A stretch of DNA of 64,000 nucleotides, taken from Myxacorys almedinensis A (lineage in GTDB: Bacteria; Cyanobacteriota; Cyanobacteriia; Leptolyngbyales; Leptolyngbyaceae). The stretch spans positions 1-64,000 of the forward strand of contig NZ_WVIE01000025.1 of assembly GCF_010091945.1 (NCBI RefSeq), in the 5' to 3' direction. The position numbers and the translations under genes are program-made. This document shows positions 17,671 to 36,252 of the stretch, piece by piece. The notes beneath the pieces were generated by a model. It had not been told where the DNA came from and did no database searches. It saw only the letters and a list, made by a program, of their open reading frames with translations. Every line of letters starts with the position of its first letter. Position 1 is the first letter of the stretch.

Positions 17671-17724
17671 AAAGTTGGGGCAACTGCCGTTTAGACCTGA
17701 TCACCAAACTTAGAGCAGCCTGTG

Positions 17725-18945
17725 ATGGATCTACTGGAATATCAAGCGAAAGAATTATTCCGCGACGCTGGGATTCCAGTTCCGGCTTACCAGCGTATTG
17801 ATCGCCCTGCCGACCTCAAAAGTCTTACCATTCCTTACCCGATCGCGATTAAGTCGCAGGTTTACATGGGGGGGCGCGGGCGCTTGGGCGGTGTGCGGAT
17901 GGCATCCAATACGATCGATGCGATCGCGGCGGCTCACACTATTTTTAACCTGCCGATCATGGGCGAACTGCCCAAGGTGCTGTTAGCCGAGGCAAAGTTT
18001 GAGATTGACCAAGAACTCTATTTGGCAGTAGTGCTAAATCGATCGATTCGTCGCCCAGTGCTGCTTGGCTCGGCTCAAGGTGGAATTGATGTGCAAACTG
18101 CGATCGCTCAAATGCAGCAAGTTGTGGTAGATCAAGAATTTTCCCCGTTTTACGCTCGGCGGTTAGTGCTGAAAATGGGCTTAAGCGGAGACCTCCTCAA
18201 TGCAGTGACTGACGTGATTGAGCGGATGTATCGCCTCTTTTTGAACAAAGATTTAGATTTAGTAGAAATTAATCCGTTGGCGGTCAACACCGCCGGTGAG
18301 GTGATGGCGTTAGATGGCAAAGTCAGCGCCAACGATGCCGCGTTGGGACGCCACCCTGCTTTAGCCGCTTTAGACATGCGATCGGGGCAGGGCGCAACTT
18401 TAAAAGAATCCCGTCCCCCTGGGGCAGCTTGGCTTCCCGATGTGCTATCGACGGTCGATCCAGATGGGCAAATCGGAGTTCTTGCCAACGGGGCAGGATT
18501 GACGATGGCAACGATGGATCTCGTGTGTCAGGCGGGCGGAAAGCCGCTAAACTGTCTCAACATTGGCGGAGAAACCCGCTCGGATGCCTTGCCTGAAGAC
18601 TTGTGTGAACGTCTAGAACAAGGCTTGGAGTTGCTGAGCCGCAATAAACAGATCAAAGTGATTTTAGTCAATATTGTGAGTGGAACCCTGCCGTGCAGTC
18701 GTGTTACTCAAGCGATCGCAAAATTTTTGCAGCGTCCGGTCTCCATTGTTCGCTCGGTCAATTCTCCCCATGATGAAGTCCGGTTGAGCCGTGTCAAGCC
18801 GTTTCCATCGCTGGTTGTGCGGTTAGTTGGCGTGCAGCTTCAAGAAGCAGAACTGTCCCTTGCGAAAACGCCCGCAATTTTTGTTGAAGACCTGGATCAG
18901 GCAATCACTCAAACGCTGTCGCTTGTTAGAAAACGCGAACCTTAA
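17725..18945 (+). CDS. sucC: Succinyl-CoA synthetase beta subunit
   Basis: The beta subunit, which with SucD interconverts succinyl-CoA and succinate with phosphorylation of ADP or GDP in the cytoplasm. The ATP-grasp domain begins MDLLEYQAKELFRDAGIPVP, and the metal and nucleotide segment LDLVEINPLAV and the ligase domain (GLTMATMDLVCQAGGKP) are present. Its 406 residues are slightly longer than the 388 of E. coli. I chose ATG at 17725 over the GTG just before it, to fit the family N-terminus. Unlike the usual adjacent arrangement, sucD follows only after 368 bases. Confidence 0.93.
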   Translation: MDLLEYQAKELFRDAGIPVPAYQRIDRPADLKSLTIPYPIAIKSQVYMGGRGRLGGVRMASNTIDAIAAAHTIFNLPIMGELPKVLLAEAKFEIDQELYLAVVLNRSIRRPVLLGSAQGGIDVQTAIAQMQQVVVDQEFSPFYARRLVLKMGLSGDLLNAVTDVIERMYRLFLNKDLDLVEINPLAVNTAGEVMALDGKVSANDAALGRHPALAALDMRSGQGATLKESRPPGAAWLPDVLSTVDPDGQIGVLANGAGLTMATMDLVCQAGGKPLNCLNIGGETRSDALPEDLCERLEQGLELLSRNKQIKVILVNIVSGTLPCSRVTQAIAKFLQRPVSIVRSVNSPHDEVRLSRVKPFPSLVVRLVGVQLQEAELSLAKTPAIFVEDLDQAITQTLSLVRKREP

Positions 18946-19313
18946 CCGTATCTTAACCGTTTCTTAAATTACAATTAGTCCAGTAAAAATACGGAACTTA
19001 ACAGGAGCATTTTTGTTGCCTTTATCGGATCTAGGAAATTCTCAGATTTAGTGACATATTCAGCAGAAATATAATGAGGTATCTCGTATGCTGCTGATAA
19101 CGCTCAGGCTTATCACTTTGTAACCTGTTTTAGTTTTCTTTAGGAAGGGCTAAAACGCTGAGAAACTCTAATACCTGAGGCTGAAACTATCTACTCTAGG
19201 CGGGTTGCAGGCATCTAATAGAACGTTTATAGTCCTACAGAAACGAGTGTTGAAATCCTGGCTATCCTTAGCCGTTCTCAAGTTTAGATTTGTTCCCTAA
19301 ACTTCCCCATTTT
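18946..19313. other. sucC-sucD spacer
   Basis: 368 bases without a gene. It is AT-rich with no recognisable terminator or repeat. Its length suggests that sucD has its own promoter. Confidence 0.4.
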
Positions 19314-20222
19314 ATGAATTTTACGGCAACCAACACAGTTATTATTCAGGGCATTACCGAACCTCTAGGTGCGTGCTATGCGCCATTAATGCAAGCCTAT
19401 GGAACGACTGTTGTTGCTGGCATTAGCTCTGGCAACGGAGGGCGATCGCTGGCAGGAATTCCAGTGTTTGACATGGTAGAGCAAGCGTTATCTAGCGTTG
19501 GTGCGATCGATACATCGGTGATTTTTTCGCCTCCCTATGCGGCGTTAGATGCCGCCCTCGAAGCGATCGCAGCCGGGGTGCGAACGATCATTCTTGTAAG
19601 TCAGGGCGTGCCTCCCCTGGATATGGTACATCTGATTCGTAAAGCCGAGGCAACCGAAACTCTAATCGTTGGTCCCAACAGCCCCGGAATTATTGTTCCT
19701 CACCAACTTTTGCTCGGCATTCATCCTCCAGAACTCTACAAGCCTGGCTCAGTTGGCATCCTTAGCCGAAACGGTACACTAACTTACGAAGTGGCGTGGT
19801 CGTTATCCCAAGCAGGCATTGGGCAATCGATCGCGGTAAGTATTGGTGACGATGCGATCGTAGGTTCAACCCTGCCCCAGTGGTTGCAAATGTTAGACGA
19901 AGACGACCAAACCGACGCCATCGTTTTAGTCGGCGAAATTGGGGGCGACAGTGAAGAACTCGCCGCACATTATATCGCAGAAGCGATTGATAAGCCTGTG
20001 ATTGCCTATATTGCTGGGCGGAGTGCTCCCCGTGGGAGACGCATGGGGCATGCAGGAGCCATTATTGAGTCTCAAGCGACTGATTTTGGCCCAGACATTG
20101 GCACGGCAGAAAGCAAAATCACAGCGCTAAAACGAGCAGGCGTTCCAGTCGCAGAGCGTCCTTCAGAGATTCCAGAGATCGTGAGAAAATTGCTCAAGCA
20201 TCCGTTAAAAAAGGTATCGTGA
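19314..20222 (+). CDS. sucD: Succinyl-CoA synthetase alpha subunit
   Basis: The 302-residue CoA-binding alpha subunit. The CoA-binding Rossmann region (VIIQGITEPLG, and GPNSPGIIVP) and the phosphorylated His in GHAGAII are visible, together with GILSRNGTLTYEV and the ligase-domain VGEIGGDSEE. The start is ATG at 19314 (MNFTATNTVIIQG); the TTG eight codons upstream is unlikely. It completes the enzyme begun by sucC and in cyanobacteria serves the alternative succinate branch of the TCA cycle. Confidence 0.92.
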   Translation: MNFTATNTVIIQGITEPLGACYAPLMQAYGTTVVAGISSGNGGRSLAGIPVFDMVEQALSSVGAIDTSVIFSPPYAALDAALEAIAAGVRTIILVSQGVPPLDMVHLIRKAEATETLIVGPNSPGIIVPHQLLLGIHPPELYKPGSVGILSRNGTLTYEVAWSLSQAGIGQSIAVSIGDDAIVGSTLPQWLQMLDEDDQTDAIVLVGEIGGDSEELAAHYIAEAIDKPVIAYIAGRSAPRGRRMGHAGAIIESQATDFGPDIGTAESKITALKRAGVPVAERPSEIPEIVRKLLKHPLKKVS

Positions 20223-20511: not shown

Positions 20512-21360
20512 TCAAGTAAGTGCCCCCTCTAACCCTGATGGATCTGCCTGATGGATCTGGTAGACATAAACCCCCCCAATATCGAGGGATGGAGCAGGAC
20601 CAATTTTGTCTACAGAAAACTTCAGATCTGCTCTGGCGAGCAAGGTTTCATAGGCTTGGTTCGACACCTTAAAGTCGCCCAGTTCGTGCAATCCAGACCA
20701 GAGGGCTTGGGATTCTAATGCCGCCAGTTCTGCATGACCGTGCTGATGAGCGATCGCAATGATGTGATGGTGATAGTCTTTTAGGGCACGTTGCCAAGCA
20801 CCGCGATCGCGCGGGTCATACGTTCGCAAAAACTCATCGCCAACGACAAACAAGCCACCAGGCTTGAGATTTTGTTTCACCTGTTCAAGATAGTTAGCTT
20901 TTTGCGATCGCTCAATATGATGATCAGAAAACGAAGAACAGATGTAATCAAAAGCGTTGGGCTGCACAAAACTACAACTATCTGCATGCACAACGGTGAC
21001 AAAATCGCACTGATGAAAGCGTTTTTCTAGCCGTTGAAGACAAACTTGATCAATCTCGATCGCAACGATCTCTACATTAGGTAATGTTGCGAGCCGTTTT
21101 GTGAAAATCCCCGTTCCCGCACCCAACTCTAGAATTCGGCAACGCCGCGACTCCTCATTTTGTTTTTGTCGATGACTCGCAATGCTGTCAAGCATTTTTG
21201 CCATCATTTCTTTATAGTAAGCATGATCCTCTTCGTACTCGTCATACGTGTTGATTTCGATGTAGCGAGACATTTCTGCTTTAAGCAGATTCGCTTCGGG
21301 TAAGGCTTTCACAAAGGCGGTTTCGGATTTCATCGAATTTCTGAATAATTGAATCTGCAT
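20512..21360 (-). CDS. Class I SAM methyltransferase overlapping the TIR-like gene
   Basis: A 282-residue Rossmann-fold methyltransferase. The SAM-binding motif is ILELGAGTGIFTKRL, followed by VAIEID and FDYICSSFSDHHI and the post-motif NLKPGGLFVVGDE. The target is unknown. The start at 21360 is supported by AGAGGAAC six bases upstream; this makes the first 27 codons overlap the 3' end of the upstream gene by 80 bases in another frame, an unusually long overlap. Starts at 21333 or 21273 lack a good Shine-Dalgarno sequence. A gapless 13-bp duplication (20534-20559) lies in the last codons, so the C-terminus has probably been rewritten. Confidence 0.85.
   Translation of the reverse strand: MQIQLFRNSMKSETAFVKALPEANLLKAEMSRYIEINTYDEYEEDHAYYKEMMAKMLDSIASHRQKQNEESRRCRILELGAGTGIFTKRLATLPNVEIVAIEIDQVCLQRLEKRFHQCDFVTVVHADSCSFVQPNAFDYICSSFSDHHIERSQKANYLEQVKQNLKPGGLFVVGDEFLRTYDPRDRGAWQRALKDYHHHIIAIAHQHGHAELAALESQALWSGLHELGDFKVSNQAYETLLARADLKFSVDKIGPAPSLDIGGVYVYQIHQADPSGLEGALT
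20534..20559. repeat. Tandem duplication, 13 bp x 2, inside a coding end
   Basis: CCTGATGGATCTG is repeated with no gap near the 3' end of the methyltransferase gene. As 13 is not a multiple of three it would have shifted the reading frame and altered the last residues. Confidence 0.88.
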
Positions 21361-22855
21361 TCGTTCCTCTAAGATTTACTTGAGAAGCTTGAGCCGTTTT
21401 GAAAACATCTTTCAGCGCCTTTTTATAATGATTCACTTCTACCGAAGCGGCGCAAAATCGAATTAGCTTTTGATTTCCTTTACTTGTCATCTCATAGTCA
21501 TATCTCGCTAAAAGCTCGCCATCTTGTTCTGTTTCAATGATTGAGAAGTCTAAATTTGGAGGAATCTGAAATTTCTCAATCAGGCGTAAATATTGATCTT
21601 TGAGCATGACGAAGACATCGTATTTATTGGCATGTCTCAGCAAAATCCCGATGCTTTGATCAAAATCTCGCAATTTTGAGAAAACAAACAGGCGCTGACT
21701 CAAACGATTTGCCGTTTCCCAAATCTCAATTCCAGATTCGTCAGGCCAAAAATGCTCAAGATTGTCAACTAATGCTACAGCGCGCACGCGAGGATTCAGC
21801 GAATTTTTTTGCAAATCAACCAAGCAGTGGGGATACTGATCGGCGGGTAGGGAAAACCTTGATCCCGTTGAGCCGACAGATTGAATCTGTTGACCCATTT
21901 CTCCCAACCGGCTGAGAAATAGCTGACGAAAGCAGTTGTTGTTACGAACATATTCATTGTCCATCAACAAAGACATGCCCGCATCGACAACGACATCGGC
22001 TTCTACTGCGGTTGCAAGAGCCGCTCTGCTTAAGTCATCGCTCAACCATTTTTCCCAATTAGAACTTGAGGCTTTGAAACTCACCCAATCTTCGGCTTCT
22101 CGCAGATCTCCTCCCAGAATGTCATGCAGCAGTTTGGATAACCCTTTTCGGGTGGTTCCGTCGATCGATGCTAAATGAGCTAAAGGCCCTGACAGATCAG
22201 CTTGATAAAGTCGTAATAACTTGAGATGGGGAATTCGGGCGGTGAGAAAGCCAATTTCAAAGTTTAGCCAAGGGCGCTTAAACCCTCGGTGGGTAATGCA
22301 AACAACGCAAACATCGGCGGAGTGTGATGCTGCTTCAGCAATCTCAGTCTGAGACGCATCTGAGGTAATATCAACACTTACGACTTGAGTTTGAAGGGAA
22401 GGATGCTTAAGGATGGTATTGCTCAGGTGTTCTGCCAAAGTTTTGCCGTCTATGCCTGAACAGAGTAGCAACACTTTTTTTCGCCTAGAGGTGGGCTTGG
22501 CAGCATTTGTGATTGCTTCGTTCCCTGCGATCGCGCTTGATACCACACTCAATTGCTCTTGGGGTGGCTGATTCTGAAATTCGGTCATTAAAATAGACTG
22601 AAGTTTGGCTAGCTTTCCAGGTCCCTTACCGAGAATCTTAAACTTTTTGTAGACTTCGCTTAGCCGCTTTCGCGTTGCTTCTGGCTCAATATCTAGCTTT
22701 TTAGCAATCTGATCGGTTGAGTCGCCATTGAGTGCCAAAGATAAAGTTTCTAGCTCAATATCCGAGACGCCGCGCTGTACGGCAGTCGTCTTGAGAAAGC
22801 TGTCAAAAGTCACAATAATAGTCACTGTAGAAAGTGCACCTCCAATTTTAATCAC
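21281..22855 (-). CDS. HTH and TIR-like domain protein, possible conflict/signalling protein
   Basis: A 524-residue protein with three parts. Residues 25-90 form a LuxR-like helix-turn-helix (VSDIELETLSLALNG, EATRKRLSEVYKKFKI, GKGPGKLAKL) of the kind placed before signalling modules in filamentous cyanobacteria. Residues 125-220 look like a TIR-type fold: VLLLCSGIDG, a SADVCVVCITHRG strand and PWLNFEIGFLTAR, where Glu200 occupies the position of the catalytic Glu of NAD-cleaving TIR domains. Residues 285-510 are a conserved-looking domain I do not recognise. The start is GTG at 22855 or GTG at 22825, the latter about 13 bases after GGAGG. It overlaps the methyltransferase gene by 80 bases. 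A defence or stress role is inference. Confidence 0.75.
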   Translation of the reverse strand: MIKIGGALSTVTIIVTFDSFLKTTAVQRGVSDIELETLSLALNGDSTDQIAKKLDIEPEATRKRLSEVYKKFKILGKGPGKLAKLQSILMTEFQNQPPQEQLSVVSSAIAGNEAITNAAKPTSRRKKVLLLCSGIDGKTLAEHLSNTILKHPSLQTQVVSVDITSDASQTEIAEAASHSADVCVVCITHRGFKRPWLNFEIGFLTARIPHLKLLRLYQADLSGPLAHLASIDGTTRKGLSKLLHDILGGDLREAEDWVSFKASSSNWEKWLSDDLSRAALATAVEADVVVDAGMSLLMDNEYVRNNNCFRQLFLSRLGEMGQQIQSVGSTGSRFSLPADQYPHCLVDLQKNSLNPRVRAVALVDNLEHFWPDESGIEIWETANRLSQRLFVFSKLRDFDQSIGILLRHANKYDVFVMLKDQYLRLIEKFQIPPNLDFSIIETEQDGELLARYDYEMTSKGNQKLIRFCAASVEVNHYKKALKDVFKTAQASQVNLRGTNADSIIQKFDEIRNRLCESLTRSESA

Positions 22856-32781: not shown

Positions 32782-35700
32782 ATGTCTCGCACTCCTAGTC
32801 GTCCTGAAATCGCCCTTCAATCTGGTCAAGCCAAACTCTGGATACTCATGGTGAGTGTTCAGCATTACGACGATCCGCACCTTCCGGCACTGCCCTACGC
32901 TGCGATCGATTGTCAGAGCTTAGCCTATGCCCTGACCCAAGCCACTCGTGCCTTTCCAGAACGCACCATTTCAATTCACCACGATTTGGCTTCTCGTACG
33001 CCAACTTTAGGTGCAGTACGAGAAAGCTTGCAAGAGATTGCAGAATATGCCCAGCCTCAAGATACCGTTTTATTTTATTTTTGTGGGCACGGTGTGTTGG
33101 AACCGCGATTGCAGCAAGCTGTTTTATGCCTCGCGGATACTCAAAAAGAGGCGTTGTTGAAAACAGGGCTAAGCGCGATCGCGCTTTTAGGATCGCTCGG
33201 CAATTGTCAAGCAAAGCAGCAGGTCGTGTGGCTAGATACCTGCCACAGAGGTGAAGCAAAGCTCAACAGTGTAAACCATCAGACCCTCGATCAACTCGAT
33301 CAATTAGACGATCCCACGGTGCAACTGATCGAAATGCTCCATCGGCGAGCCGCCCAACACCCAGGGTTTGATGCCTTTCTGTCGTGCGATCGCTTTCAGC
33401 AATCCTGGAAGTTTCCAGAGCTTGGGCATGGTCTGTTCACCTACGTTCTGATGCAAGGTTTGCAGGGAGAAGCTGCCAATTCGCAAGGCATCATCGACAC
33501 CGATAGATTGTGCGATTACGTTTATAGCCACACGTTGCAACATCTCAACCAACGCAATCAAGAAATTCGCTCAGCAAATCAACACAAACAAGATTGGGAA
33601 GAGCGGCAGCCTGAATATACCTTGCAGAAACCCAGGAGAATTGTTAAGGGCAATGAAAAAATCGTTTTAGGATTGAAATTAACAGACTCCCCAATTTCTA
33701 CAGTTTCTACAGTTGCAAACCAAGAGTCGAGCAGTCCTTCTGCCCCCGATCAGGCGACAGCACAAGACTCGATCAAACCGTTCCAGCCAGAGATTGTCGA
33801 AACTCAGCTTCCCCCAAGATTGATCCAATCGATCGTGCCCCTCGCTCAAGAGCCGATCATACCGACAGCTAGCCAAATCACGCCGCCTTTCCAAAAATCG
33901 ACAGATCTCTCCTTCGAGCAACGCCAGCGCGAAGAAATCGAACGTCGGCAGGAGATTGAGCAACGCCAACGCGAAGAAATCGAACGTCAACAGCAGCGCC
34001 AAAAAGCGGCTGAGGAGCAGCGTCAACAAGAAGAAGCGGAACGCCGTCGGCAACAACTTGAACAGCAACAGCGTGAACAAAACTTAGAACGCACTCGGCA
34101 ACAGGTTGAACAGCGCCAGCGCCAGGAGAAAGCCAAACGTCTTCAGCAAGAAATTGAACAACGGCGACAAGAGGAAGCAAAGCGCCATCAGCAAGAAATT
34201 GAGCAACGTCAACGCGAAGAAGCGGAACGTCTTCGGCAGCAGCTTGAACAACGTCAACGCAAGGAATCGGAACGGCGACAGCAAGAAATCGAGCAACGTC
34301 AGCGCGAGGAAGAAGCAGAACGTCTTCGGCAATTTCAAAAAGCGGCTGAAGAACAACGTCAACGCGAAGAAGCGGAACGTCTCCGGCAGCAACTTGAACA
34401 ACGTCAACGCGAAGAAGCGGAACGCCATCAGCAAGAAATTGAGCAACGTCAACGCGAAGAAGCGGAACGTGAACAGCAACGCCAAAAAGCGGCTGAAGCC
34501 CAACGCCAACGTGAGGAAGAAACTGAACGCCGTCGAAAAAATGAACAACGGCAGCAAGCGGAAACTGAGCAGCAAGCGGCTGAAGCCCTGCGCCAACGCG
34601 AAGAAGTTGAGCGTTACCGTCAACAGCTAGAACGACGCCAACGCGAGGAGGAAGAGGCGGAACGTCGCCGCCAAGAAATTGAGCGACGCCAGCATGAAGC
34701 AGCCGAACGGCAGCGCCAACAGCTTCAAAAGGCAACAGAAGCCCAACGCCAACGCGAAGCCCAAGCTGAGCGCCGTCATCAACAGCTTCAAAAAGCCTCT
34801 GAGATGACAGATAGCTTAAAACGGCTTGCCTCGACAACCAGCCAACACACGGTTACAGCAGTCGGAGGCTTGAAACAGTCTACCCATGAACTGACCCATC
34901 GCTTTGTTGATCAGCAACGAAGTCCCCAAACTCGCAAAGTGGTTGCCTTTACGTTGGGCGGTCTAGGGCTGCTGGCGTCTGGAATGGCGGTCTTTAGCCT
35001 TTATCAGCACCGCAACGCCCAACTTCGAGATATCAATGCGCTATCTACCACTTCAGAAACGCTGTTATCGTCTCAGCCACAAACCGCCCTGGTGACCGCA
35101 CTCCAAGCTGGGCGTCGATTGCAAAAACTTGATCAACCTTGGAATCTGTTGCCAAAACAGACAAAACTAAGCGCGATCGCAACCCTTCAGCAAGCGATTA
35201 CCCGTTCTCAACCCGCAACTCAACTTTCAGAACGCCAGCCCATCACCGCGATTGCCTATAGGTCTGATGGGCAAAAACTTGCCACCGCCAGCAGCGAAAG
35301 CGGGATTACACTGTGGAATAAAGGCAAAGATTCTGGTCGTTGGGAACGCTCGACTACGACCTTTAAAAGCCACACTGAGCCAGTTACGAAACTTCAATTT
35401 AGCCCTGATGGCACTCTATTAGCCTCTGCCAGCATTGATAAAACCATTAAGCTTTGGAACCTTGAAAAAAGAATCCTCATCAAAACGTTACCCGGACACA
35501 GCGATCGCGTGATCGCTCTTCGCTTTCGCCCGGATGGTGGCGTGCTTGCATCGGGCAGTGTAGATCGAACGATCAAACTTTGGACGGTGCCAAAGGGTGA
35601 CTTAGTAGAAACCCTCAAAGGAAGCGAAGCTGCCATTAGCGCGATCGCGTTTAGCGCAGACGGTCGCATTCTTGCTGCCGGAAGTAGCGACAACACCCTC

Positions 35701-36252
35701 CGCCTGTGGTATCCCGAAAGCAACCAGCCGATTTTGCTGGGTCATCATAATGTCTCGCCTGATCCAGCTAAGCTGCAAGGAATTACAGACTTGACCTTTA
35801 GCCCAGACGGAAAAGCGATCGCATCTTCTGGGTGGGACAAAACGATCAAACTTTGGACGGTGAGCAATGCTAAGCCTGAGCGGGAGGCAAGTCCTTACTT
35901 GACATTAAATGGGCATCGCGGGATTGTGACCAGCGTCAGCTTTAGTCTCGATGGGCAAAACTTGGCATCGGGCAGCCAAGACAAAACCATCAACCTTTGG
36001 AATTTACGCAGCGGCGGAGTGATCAAAACCTTATCCGGGCATCAAGACACTGTGGAGAGCCTCTCGTTTCACGGCACGGAAGAGACGCTAATGAGTGTCA
36101 GCGATCGCAATGGAATCCTGATCTGGGATCTAAATCTAGCAACCCTGATAAAGCAAGGATGCAGCCAGCTAAACCAATCTCCCAGCGATATCTCGGAAAG
36201 TGATTTGCCCTCCCAAACCATTCGCGAAATTGATGCGATTTGCTACAAATGA
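32782..36252 (+). CDS. Caspase-like (C14) protease with coiled coil, TM helix and WD40 propeller
   Basis: A 1156-residue orthocaspase-type protein. Residues 15-275 are a caspase/peptidase C14 domain: the catalytic His is in FYFCGHGV and the Cys in VVWLDTCHRG, both retained. About 375-675 is an extremely repetitive Gln/Arg/Glu heptad region with a recurring unit like QRQREEAERLRQQ, predicted to form a long single alpha-helix or coiled coil. A membrane segment follows (VVAFTLGGLGLLASGMAVFSLY, about 717-738). Residues 815-1120 hold about seven WD40 repeats (for example FSPDGTLLASASIDKTIKLW). Bacterial C14-WD40 proteins are linked to stress and cell death, by homology only. It is monocistronic. 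Confidence 0.9.
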   Translation: MSRTPSRPEIALQSGQAKLWILMVSVQHYDDPHLPALPYAAIDCQSLAYALTQATRAFPERTISIHHDLASRTPTLGAVRESLQEIAEYAQPQDTVLFYFCGHGVLEPRLQQAVLCLADTQKEALLKTGLSAIALLGSLGNCQAKQQVVWLDTCHRGEAKLNSVNHQTLDQLDQLDDPTVQLIEMLHRRAAQHPGFDAFLSCDRFQQSWKFPELGHGLFTYVLMQGLQGEAANSQGIIDTDRLCDYVYSHTLQHLNQRNQEIRSANQHKQDWEERQPEYTLQKPRRIVKGNEKIVLGLKLTDSPISTVSTVANQESSSPSAPDQATAQDSIKPFQPEIVETQLPPRLIQSIVPLAQEPIIPTASQITPPFQKSTDLSFEQRQREEIERRQEIEQRQREEIERQQQRQKAAEEQRQQEEAERRRQQLEQQQREQNLERTRQQVEQRQRQEKAKRLQQEIEQRRQEEAKRHQQEIEQRQREEAERLRQQLEQRQRKESERRQQEIEQRQREEEAERLRQFQKAAEEQRQREEAERLRQQLEQRQREEAERHQQEIEQRQREEAEREQQRQKAAEAQRQREEETERRRKNEQRQQAETEQQAAEALRQREEVERYRQQLERRQREEEEAERRRQEIERRQHEAAERQRQQLQKATEAQRQREAQAERRHQQLQKASEMTDSLKRLASTTSQHTVTAVGGLKQSTHELTHRFVDQQRSPQTRKVVAFTLGGLGLLASGMAVFSLYQHRNAQLRDINALSTTSETLLSSQPQTALVTALQAGRRLQKLDQPWNLLPKQTKLSAIATLQQAITRSQPATQLSERQPITAIAYRSDGQKLATASSESGITLWNKGKDSGRWERSTTTFKSHTEPVTKLQFSPDGTLLASASIDKTIKLWNLEKRILIKTLPGHSDRVIALRFRPDGGVLASGSVDRTIKLWTVPKGDLVETLKGSEAAISAIAFSADGRILAAGSSDNTLRLWYPESNQPILLGHHNVSPDPAKLQGITDLTFSPDGKAIASSGWDKTIKLWTVSNAKPEREASPYLTLNGHRGIVTSVSFSLDGQNLASGSQDKTINLWNLRSGGVIKTLSGHQDTVESLSFHGTEETLMSVSDRNGILIWDLNLATLIKQGCSQLNQSPSDISESDLPSQTIREIDAICYK
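33900..34800 (+). repeat. Coding repeat array in the caspase-like gene
   Basis: Degenerate DNA repeats built on CAACGTCAACGCGAAGAAGC encode the charged coiled-coil region. They are translated repeats, not CRISPR, with no spacers. The bias opens long spurious frames on both strands. Confidence 0.85.

What the first reader, a model, noticed from the sequence alone, without database searches (positions are those of the whole stretch)
20512..22855. HTH-TIR-like gene overlapping a methyltransferase gene by 80 bases
Seen: a LuxR-like HTH, a TIR-like region with Glu200 in PWLNFEIGF, and a large unassigned C-terminal domain, followed out of frame by a methyltransferase whose Shine-Dalgarno sequence AGAGGAAC lies within the first gene. 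Known: TIR domains in bacteria often deplete NAD in immune systems. Inference: a two-protein signalling or defence operon with translational coupling.
Basis: partly seen in the sequence, partly recalled or inferred. Interest (0 to 1): 0.62.

Follow-up and report, generated by a model that had tools for sequence, protein, structure and literature searches.

The report
Cyanobacterial TIR protein with partner methyltransferase
In a cyanobacterium, two overlapping genes make a TIR-domain protein and a methyltransferase that lie side by side or fused in the relatives found, so they probably work together in a rare signalling or defence module whose job is untested.

Summary
On the minus strand, gene 1 (21281-22855, 524 aa) and gene 2 (20512-21360, 282 aa) overlap by 80 bases out of frame. 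Gene 1 is HTH + TIR + a C-terminal domain that models as phospholipase-D-like (PLD-like), without a conserved HKD motif. Gene 2 is a class I SAM methyltransferase.

The pairing is real: all 9 close methyltransferases found (window included) follow, or are fused to, this TIR-PLD-like gene or its remnant (two are broken). In ten other loci the protein has GAF domains instead; one of these is cut short.

The overlap is peculiar to this genome: the methyltransferase core starts 4 bases after the gene 1 stop here, 84-213 bases after it in six relatives.

NAD depletion is doubtful for the family: the WxxxE glutamate is kept in the window and both fusions but replaced in 14 of 17 aligned members. Both fusions lie near an 8xMP membrane-protein gene, not found in the window genome or six pair genomes.

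Best reading: a sensor/regulator controlling a partner methyltransferase, possibly in defence; function and substrate untested. The paper searches run showed no such module.

The parts
21281..22855 (-). Gene 1: HTH-TIR-PLD-like protein, 524 aa from GTG 22855 (an inner GTG at 22813 is a plausible alternative start)
22568..22807 (-). N-terminal LuxR-like HTH (residues 17-96) with the GxGPGKLxKLQ extension, shared with NB-ARC/NACHT STAND proteins of related genomes
   Evidence: (GerE E 0.0039, below cut-off)
22076..22486 (-). TIR domain
22256..22258 (-). Codon of Glu200 (WxxxE, aligned with the AbTIR W-x-N-Y-E glutamate)
21398..22045 (-). C-terminal domain, PLD-like fold by AlphaFold model and VIA-align; no conserved HKD motif
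20512..21360 (-). Gene 2: class I SAM-dependent methyltransferase, 282 aa
21100..21135 (-). SAM-binding motif I of the methyltransferase (ILELGAGTGIFT, residues 76-87)
   Evidence: mostly invariant columns
21281..21360 (-). 80-base out-of-frame overlap of the two genes (not conserved in relatives)
21363..21370 (-). AGAGGAAC, Shine-Dalgarno-like sequence for gene 2 inside gene 1
   Evidence: sequence
21241..21276 (-). Start of the conserved methyltransferase core (EMSRYIEINTYD), 4 bases after the gene 1 stop

Best explanation
A rare cyanobacterial two-protein module. Gene 1 is a sensor/regulator: an HTH of the kind found on STAND proteins, a TIR domain, and a PLD-like domain without a conserved HKD motif, comparable in fold to the PLD-like domain of TrmB/TrmBL2. 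Gene 2 is its dedicated class I methyltransferase, the likely enzymatic output. Shown here: the linkage of this methyltransferase to the TIR-PLD-like protein, the fused forms, the TIR fold, and the replacement of the WxxxE glutamate in most relatives. Supported by a model only: the PLD-like fold. Inferred: the two proteins bind each other; the PLD-like domain and/or the TIR pocket sense a ligand (an NAD-derived or stress metabolite, or a phage cue), which switches the methyltransferase and/or transcription; in the window the TIR may still cleave NAD, because Glu200 is kept. A role in stress or phage defence is plausible but unproven.
For: Linkage: 9 of 9 close methyltransferases (E < 1e-120, window included) in the genomes scanned (208 of one family; 257 of the class; 28 relatives; samples overlap) follow or are fused to TIR-PLD-like: window; G040 and G141 fused; G451, G458, G459, G564 separate; G411 interrupted; G412 truncated. 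By eye the gene 1 C-terminus ends at an equivalent place in the window and the pair relatives, so the two-gene form looks natural. TIR fold. PLD-like: the first 35 rows, Z 8.8 to 5.3, are all proteins that I know as PLD superfamily; the first other fold (actin) is at 4.9. The same domain, at low identity, follows a different TIR in two further proteins. HTH shared with NB-ARC/NACHT proteins. The glutamate is replaced in 14 of 17, while the PLD-like domain keeps 22 invariant columns and methyltransferase motif I keeps 10 of 11 positions invariant in 7 of 7: the conserved activity is not TIR catalysis.
Against: The window keeps Glu200 and so may well be an active NADase. No physical interaction, ligand or methyl acceptor is shown. 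The PLD-like assignment rests on a model from four sequences (mean pLDDT 60.5, pTM 0.63); Foldseek gave no hit under E 0.05; the best VIA Z of 8.8 is only a little above the 7 to 8 that the tool quotes for models without a clear match. The GAF forms carry no methyltransferase, so the TIR-PLD-like protein can act without one. The HTH could be a protein-interaction adaptor rather than a DNA binder.
Confidence: 0.5

Rival explanations
1. An abortive-infection or stress NADase: the TIR of gene 1 cleaves NAD (or makes a cyclic ADP-ribose signal) when triggered, and the methyltransferase is an accessory or restraining partner.
For: Glu200 kept at the AbTIR position; TIR fold close to SPARTA, SARM1 and TIR-STING; the fusion relatives keep the glutamate and lie near an 8xMP membrane-protein gene, which would fit a TIR-signal/membrane-effector pair; patchy distribution, 5 of 388 class genomes, window included.
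Against: Glutamate replaced by A, L or T in 14 of 17 aligned members, including all four intact two-gene relatives; the window TIR scores under the Pfam cut-off (17.0 against 28 bits); no 8xMP found in the window genome; no ThsA family among 34 chosen window ORFs at E 1e-10, though one caspase-like and some protease-like matches were seen.
Confidence: 0.27
2. An ordinary environmental regulator: a TrmB-like HTH/PLD-like transcription factor with a scaffold TIR, controlling a small-molecule methyltransferase of metabolism, with nothing to do with defence.
For: Ten of 18 family loci carry GAF-type C-termini instead of the methyltransferase (Pfam GAF in two; by alignment in the rest); TrmBL2 and TrmB are among the fold matches; the annotated window neighbours look like housekeeping or membrane genes.
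Against: Patchy distribution; two broken copies in two genomes of one genus, typical of accessory genes; the HTH is shared with STAND proteins.
Confidence: 0.2
3. The two ORFs are halves of a former single fused gene, split by a frameshift in the window genome.
For: TIR-PLD-like and methyltransferase occur as one ORF in two relatives; the frames meet within 80 bases.
Against: The fusions lack the HTH and form their own branch; in the HTH form with methyltransferase the separate arrangement is the rule, with spacers of 84-213 bases before the methyltransferase core and, by eye, the gene 1 stop in an equivalent place.
Confidence: 0.03

Closest known systems
Bacterial TIR domains (AbTIR, SPARTA TIR-APAZ, TIR-STING, Thoeris ThsB)
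   Same: TIR fold; W-x-x-x-E motif kept in the window
   Different: Partner is a methyltransferase; no ThsA family among the window ORFs scanned; glutamate replaced in most relatives
TrmB / TrmBL2 (archaeal HTH + PLD-like regulators; domain make-up recalled)
   Same: HTH plus PLD-like domain without a conserved HKD motif; among the fold matches, TrmBL2 Z 8.6 and TrmB Z 7.3
   Different: A TIR domain sits between HTH and PLD-like domain; no sequence match in the PDB search
STAND NTPases of cyanobacteria (NB-ARC, NACHT-NCH2, WD40 proteins)
   Same: The same kind of N-terminal HTH with its GPGKLxKLQ extension
   Different: No NTPase domain in gene 1
PADLOC TIR-TM and MADS mad2 models
   Same: TIR part matches TIR-TM (2.6e-5 in the window, 3e-20 in fusion L029); in fusion L004 the TIR-TM match runs on to residue 293, into the C-terminal domain, so kinship beyond the TIR is possible; methyltransferase matches mad2 (4.5e-19)
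   Different: In the window only the TIR part (169-246) and only the methyltransferase part of mad2 match; transmembrane segments were not looked for
8xMP octameric membrane protein family (PF24838)
   Same: Near both fused relatives, the only 8xMP found in those genomes
   Different: Not found in the window genome or the six pair genomes

Membership tests
TIR domain superfamily | TIR (flavodoxin-like) fold | tested here: met
   Model residues 121-251 match SPARTA TIR Z 11.4, rmsd 4.0, 122 aligned; SARM1 Z 10.4; TIR-STING Z 10.4. Some GTPases reach Z near 10, so fold alone is not specific; sequence profiles agree
TIR domain superfamily | Score over the curated Pfam TIR_2 cut-off | tested here: inconclusive
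   Window 17.0 bits against 28; fusion relative L026/L029 32.9 bits, over the cut-off; 12 of 17 members match TIR_2 at E <= 0.1
Catalytic TIR NADase | Catalytic Glu in WxxxE (that the AbTIR Glu is catalytic is recalled) | tested here: met
   Window Glu200 aligned to AbTIR; but only 3 of 17 members have it
Catalytic TIR NADase | NAD cleavage | not testable with these tools
   needs an enzyme assay
Thoeris | ThsA (SIR2-SLOG) effector next to the TIR gene | tested here: not met
   No ThsA family among 34 chosen window ORFs at E 1e-10; window only
TIR-TM (PADLOC) | TIR followed by transmembrane part | not tested
   Profile matches the TIR part in the window and nearly its whole length in L004; transmembrane segments not examined
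Class I SAM methyltransferase | Intact SAM motif I and family profile over cut-off | tested here: met
   Methyltransf_25 55.6 bits against 27; in L-E-(L/V)-G-A-G-T-G-I-F-T 10 of 11 positions invariant in 7 of 7
PLD superfamily | PLD fold | tested here: inconclusive
   VIA-align Z 8.8 (NucT), 8.6 (TrmBL2), 8.5 (SauUSI); model mean pLDDT 60.5; Foldseek best E 0.068
PLD superfamily, catalytic | Conserved HxK(x)4D motif | tested here: not met
   0 of 18 relatives; one unconserved match near the C-terminal end of the window domain
LuxR/GerE HTH | Score over the Pfam GerE cut-off | tested here: not met
   17.2 against 23.5 bits; helices in the model
MADS defence system | Set of mad genes | tested here: not met
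   Only the methyltransferase part of mad2 matches gene 2; among 34 chosen window ORFs one other mad2 match and no other mad gene at E 1e-10

The most novel reading that the evidence does not exclude
A TIR-based module whose output is methylation rather than NAD depletion. In most members the TIR is a pseudoenzyme that, with the PLD-like domain, senses a ligand (perhaps an NAD-derived or phage-induced signal) and switches a dedicated methyltransferase. A fused branch keeps an active TIR and adds an 8xMP membrane effector.
Probability: 0.25. Interest if true: 0.75.

Novelty: new variant of a known kind. Interest (0 to 1): 0.5.

Why it matters
TIR proteins are known mainly as NAD-consuming enzymes or scaffolds. 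A TIR protein tied to its own methyltransferase, with natural relatives that have and lack the catalytic glutamate and with fused and split forms, offers a ready comparison for asking what a bacterial TIR does when it does not cleave NAD, and whether methylation can be an immune or stress output.

Tried and rejected
Overlap as a conserved coupling device: rejected, relatives have spacers. Split of a fused gene by frameshift: unlikely. C-terminal domain by sequence: Pfam on 17 members and PDB profiles gave nothing useful, and hhalign against two other TIR proteins gave nothing. The FliG_C and Sgo0707 hits and the methylmalonyl-CoA mutase and Csa3 hits are weak and below their cut-offs. Foldseek on the whole gene 1 model put NanR, an unrelated regulator, first (E 5.8e-4, rmsd 24) and TIR proteins at E 0.018-0.07. 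Plasmid and phage records: no relative of the TIR-PLD part (one plasmid HTH match). Viral contigs: none of 90 pattern matches. Weaker methyltransferase relatives (E 1e-19 to 1e-22, 6 genomes): in the three inspected by eye, no TIR beside them. Defence neighbourhood: 34 window ORFs gave single caspase, protease and mad2 matches; the flanks of the pair loci differ by eye, apart from G451, G411 and G412, which share theirs. Promoter scan: 2 promoter-like sites against 4.3 in shuffles; 8 terminator-like sites against 2.9, several inside gene 2, not followed up. The methyltransferase tree (7 rows) has a very long window branch and no firmly supported branch. The root of the TIR-PLD-like tree is not settled. 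Papers: no title, abstract start or passage that I saw in searches describes a TIR-methyltransferase pair or fusion. For 8xMP, one search gave 4 unrelated papers; two searches matched tens of thousands of papers, of which 10 each were listed, so they show little.

Full report
What is there. The window lies in contig G000:C17 of a genome of 4.96 Mb. That it is a cyanobacterium follows from kinship: its class also holds Cylindrospermum, Nostoc and Calothrix loci found here. Gene 1 (21281-22855, minus, 524 aa from GTG) and gene 2 (20512-21360, minus, 282 aa) overlap by 80 bases in different frames.

Gene 1, HTH. Residues 17-96 give a sub-threshold GerE match (17.2 against 23.5 bits) and helices in the model. 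The same kind of HTH with its GPGKLxKLQ extension heads proteins of 449-1242 aa in related genomes. Pfam was run on four of these: one listed WD40 models in its best 25, one NB-ARC, and two NACHT with NCH2.

Gene 1, TIR. The window TIR is below the Pfam TIR_2 cut-off (17.0 against 28 bits), but a fusion relative passes it (32.9 bits) and 12 of 17 members match TIR_2 at E up to 0.1. The AlphaFold model (mean pLDDT 58.8; ten-residue means of 49 to 85 in the TIR part, lowest around Glu200) matches SPARTA TIR at Z 11.4, SARM1 at 10.4 and TIR-STING at 10.4; small GTPases reach about 10. Foldseek put NanR first, with TIR proteins further down. A profile of 17 TIRs finds AbTIR and another TIR protein in the PDB (E 0.007-0.027), with the AbTIR W-x-N-Y-E lying on the family's W-x-N-F-E. 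At that position the 17 members read E in 3 (window and the two fusions), A in 8, L in 5 and T in 1; a fragment of the interrupted G411 gene reads A. The window is the only one of 15 aligned HTH-bearing members with Glu.

Gene 1, C-terminal domain. No useful Pfam or PDB sequence relative was found. Folded alone with three relatives it gave pTM 0.63 and mean pLDDT 60.5. In VIA-align the first 35 of 50 rows are PLD-superfamily structures: NucT 8.8, TrmBL2 8.6, SauUSI 8.5, PLD3 8.2, Zucchini 8.2, BfiI 7.9, TrmB 7.3 and others down to 5.3; actin follows at 4.9 (that these are PLD-like is my own knowledge). This is a second look at Foldseek's own candidates, and the best Z is little above the 7 to 8 that the tool quotes as background. 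Foldseek gave TrmBL2 first, at E 0.068. A conserved HKD motif is absent: 0 of 18 relatives; the window has one unconserved match near the end of the domain. The same domain, at low identity, follows another TIR in two more proteins with a Dabb match (one over the cut-off, one below).

Gene 2. Class I SAM methyltransferase (Methyltransf_25, 55.6 bits), 46-52% identical to its relatives, motif I with 10 of 11 positions invariant in the 7 aligned. PDB matches include small-molecule, phosphoethanolamine and rRNA methyltransferases, so the substrate cannot be named.

Relatives and architectures. The TIR-PLD-like family was found at 18 loci in 17 genomes. In the first class sample it was 5 of 388, window included; in the family of G141 14 of 217 genomes hold it (one gene interrupted, one cut at the end of its locus), and 5 further hits matched the TIR part only. 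Ten loci are HTH-TIR-PLD-like forms with a GAF C-terminus (Pfam in two; by alignment in the rest; one cut short). Two are TIR-PLD-like-methyltransferase fusions without HTH (G040, G141). Six are two-gene forms: window, G451, G458, G459, G564 and G411, the last interrupted. Searching by the methyltransferase found the same two-gene and fused loci plus G412, whose TIR gene is truncated. All 9 close methyltransferases are thus tied to a TIR-PLD-like gene or its remnant. Six weaker methyltransferase relatives exist; the three inspected by eye have no TIR neighbour. In the TIR-PLD-like tree the GAF form, the pair form and the fusions are each one side of a branch; the window is a long branch next to the GAF group. 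The root is open.

The overlap. In six two-gene relatives the conserved methyltransferase core (EMSxYI) begins 84, 88, 88, 89, 197 and 213 bases after the gene 1 stop; in the window it begins 4 bases after. A start upstream of the core must therefore lie inside gene 1, and the overlap is best read as loss of a spacer. It may couple translation here, but it is not a conserved feature.

8xMP. Each fusion genome has one 8xMP (PF24838) match, on the same strand as the fusion: next gene downstream in G141, and upstream with one gene between in G040. The window genome and the six pair genomes have none (the two proteins are 51% identical). This links the Glu-keeping fused form with a membrane protein, reminiscent of the SLATT genes found beside TIR and similar domains (passages of PMC7159879, and PMC9503650); but the window, which also keeps Glu, has no 8xMP.

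Mechanism. I judge most likely a regulator (HTH, TIR, non-catalytic PLD-like) with a dedicated methyltransferase as output. The linkage and fusions are shown; binding, ligand and substrate are inferred. NAD cleavage by the window protein remains possible because Glu200 is kept. A role in defence rests only on family resemblance, patchy distribution and broken copies in two genomes of one genus.

Literature. In full-text searches I saw no TIR-methyltransferase module. I read passages of PMC8195603, PMC7159879, PMC7517822, PMC9503650 and PMC10853773; the others I saw only as listings. The library lacks most subscription papers.

Noticed in passing
L004:601-4006 and L026:1486-4061: TIR-PLD-like-methyltransferase fusions each stand near the only 8xMP (PF24838) match of their genome; the window genome and six pair genomes have none.
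   Followed up: partly
L086:907-2685, L087:952-2718: Proteins with a different TIR, the same PLD-like domain at low identity, and a C-terminal Dabb-like match: a further TIR-PLD-like architecture.
   Followed up: partly
L065:8571-10045 and L108:5780-6100: Broken copies of the TIR gene (one interrupted, one truncated) beside intact methyltransferase genes in two genomes of one genus.
   Followed up: partly
window 32782-36252: A 1156-aa protein ending in WD40 repeats; a caspase-like PADLOC match among the window ORFs may belong to it, but which ORF was not determined.
   Followed up: no
L067:6534-8537: Three tandem von Willebrand A-like genes (by eye, no family search) upstream of the G141 fusion.
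   Followed up: no
window 17722-20222: Two genes in a row that look like succinyl-CoA ligase beta and alpha subunits with a 344-base gap between them (by eye, no family search).
   Followed up: no
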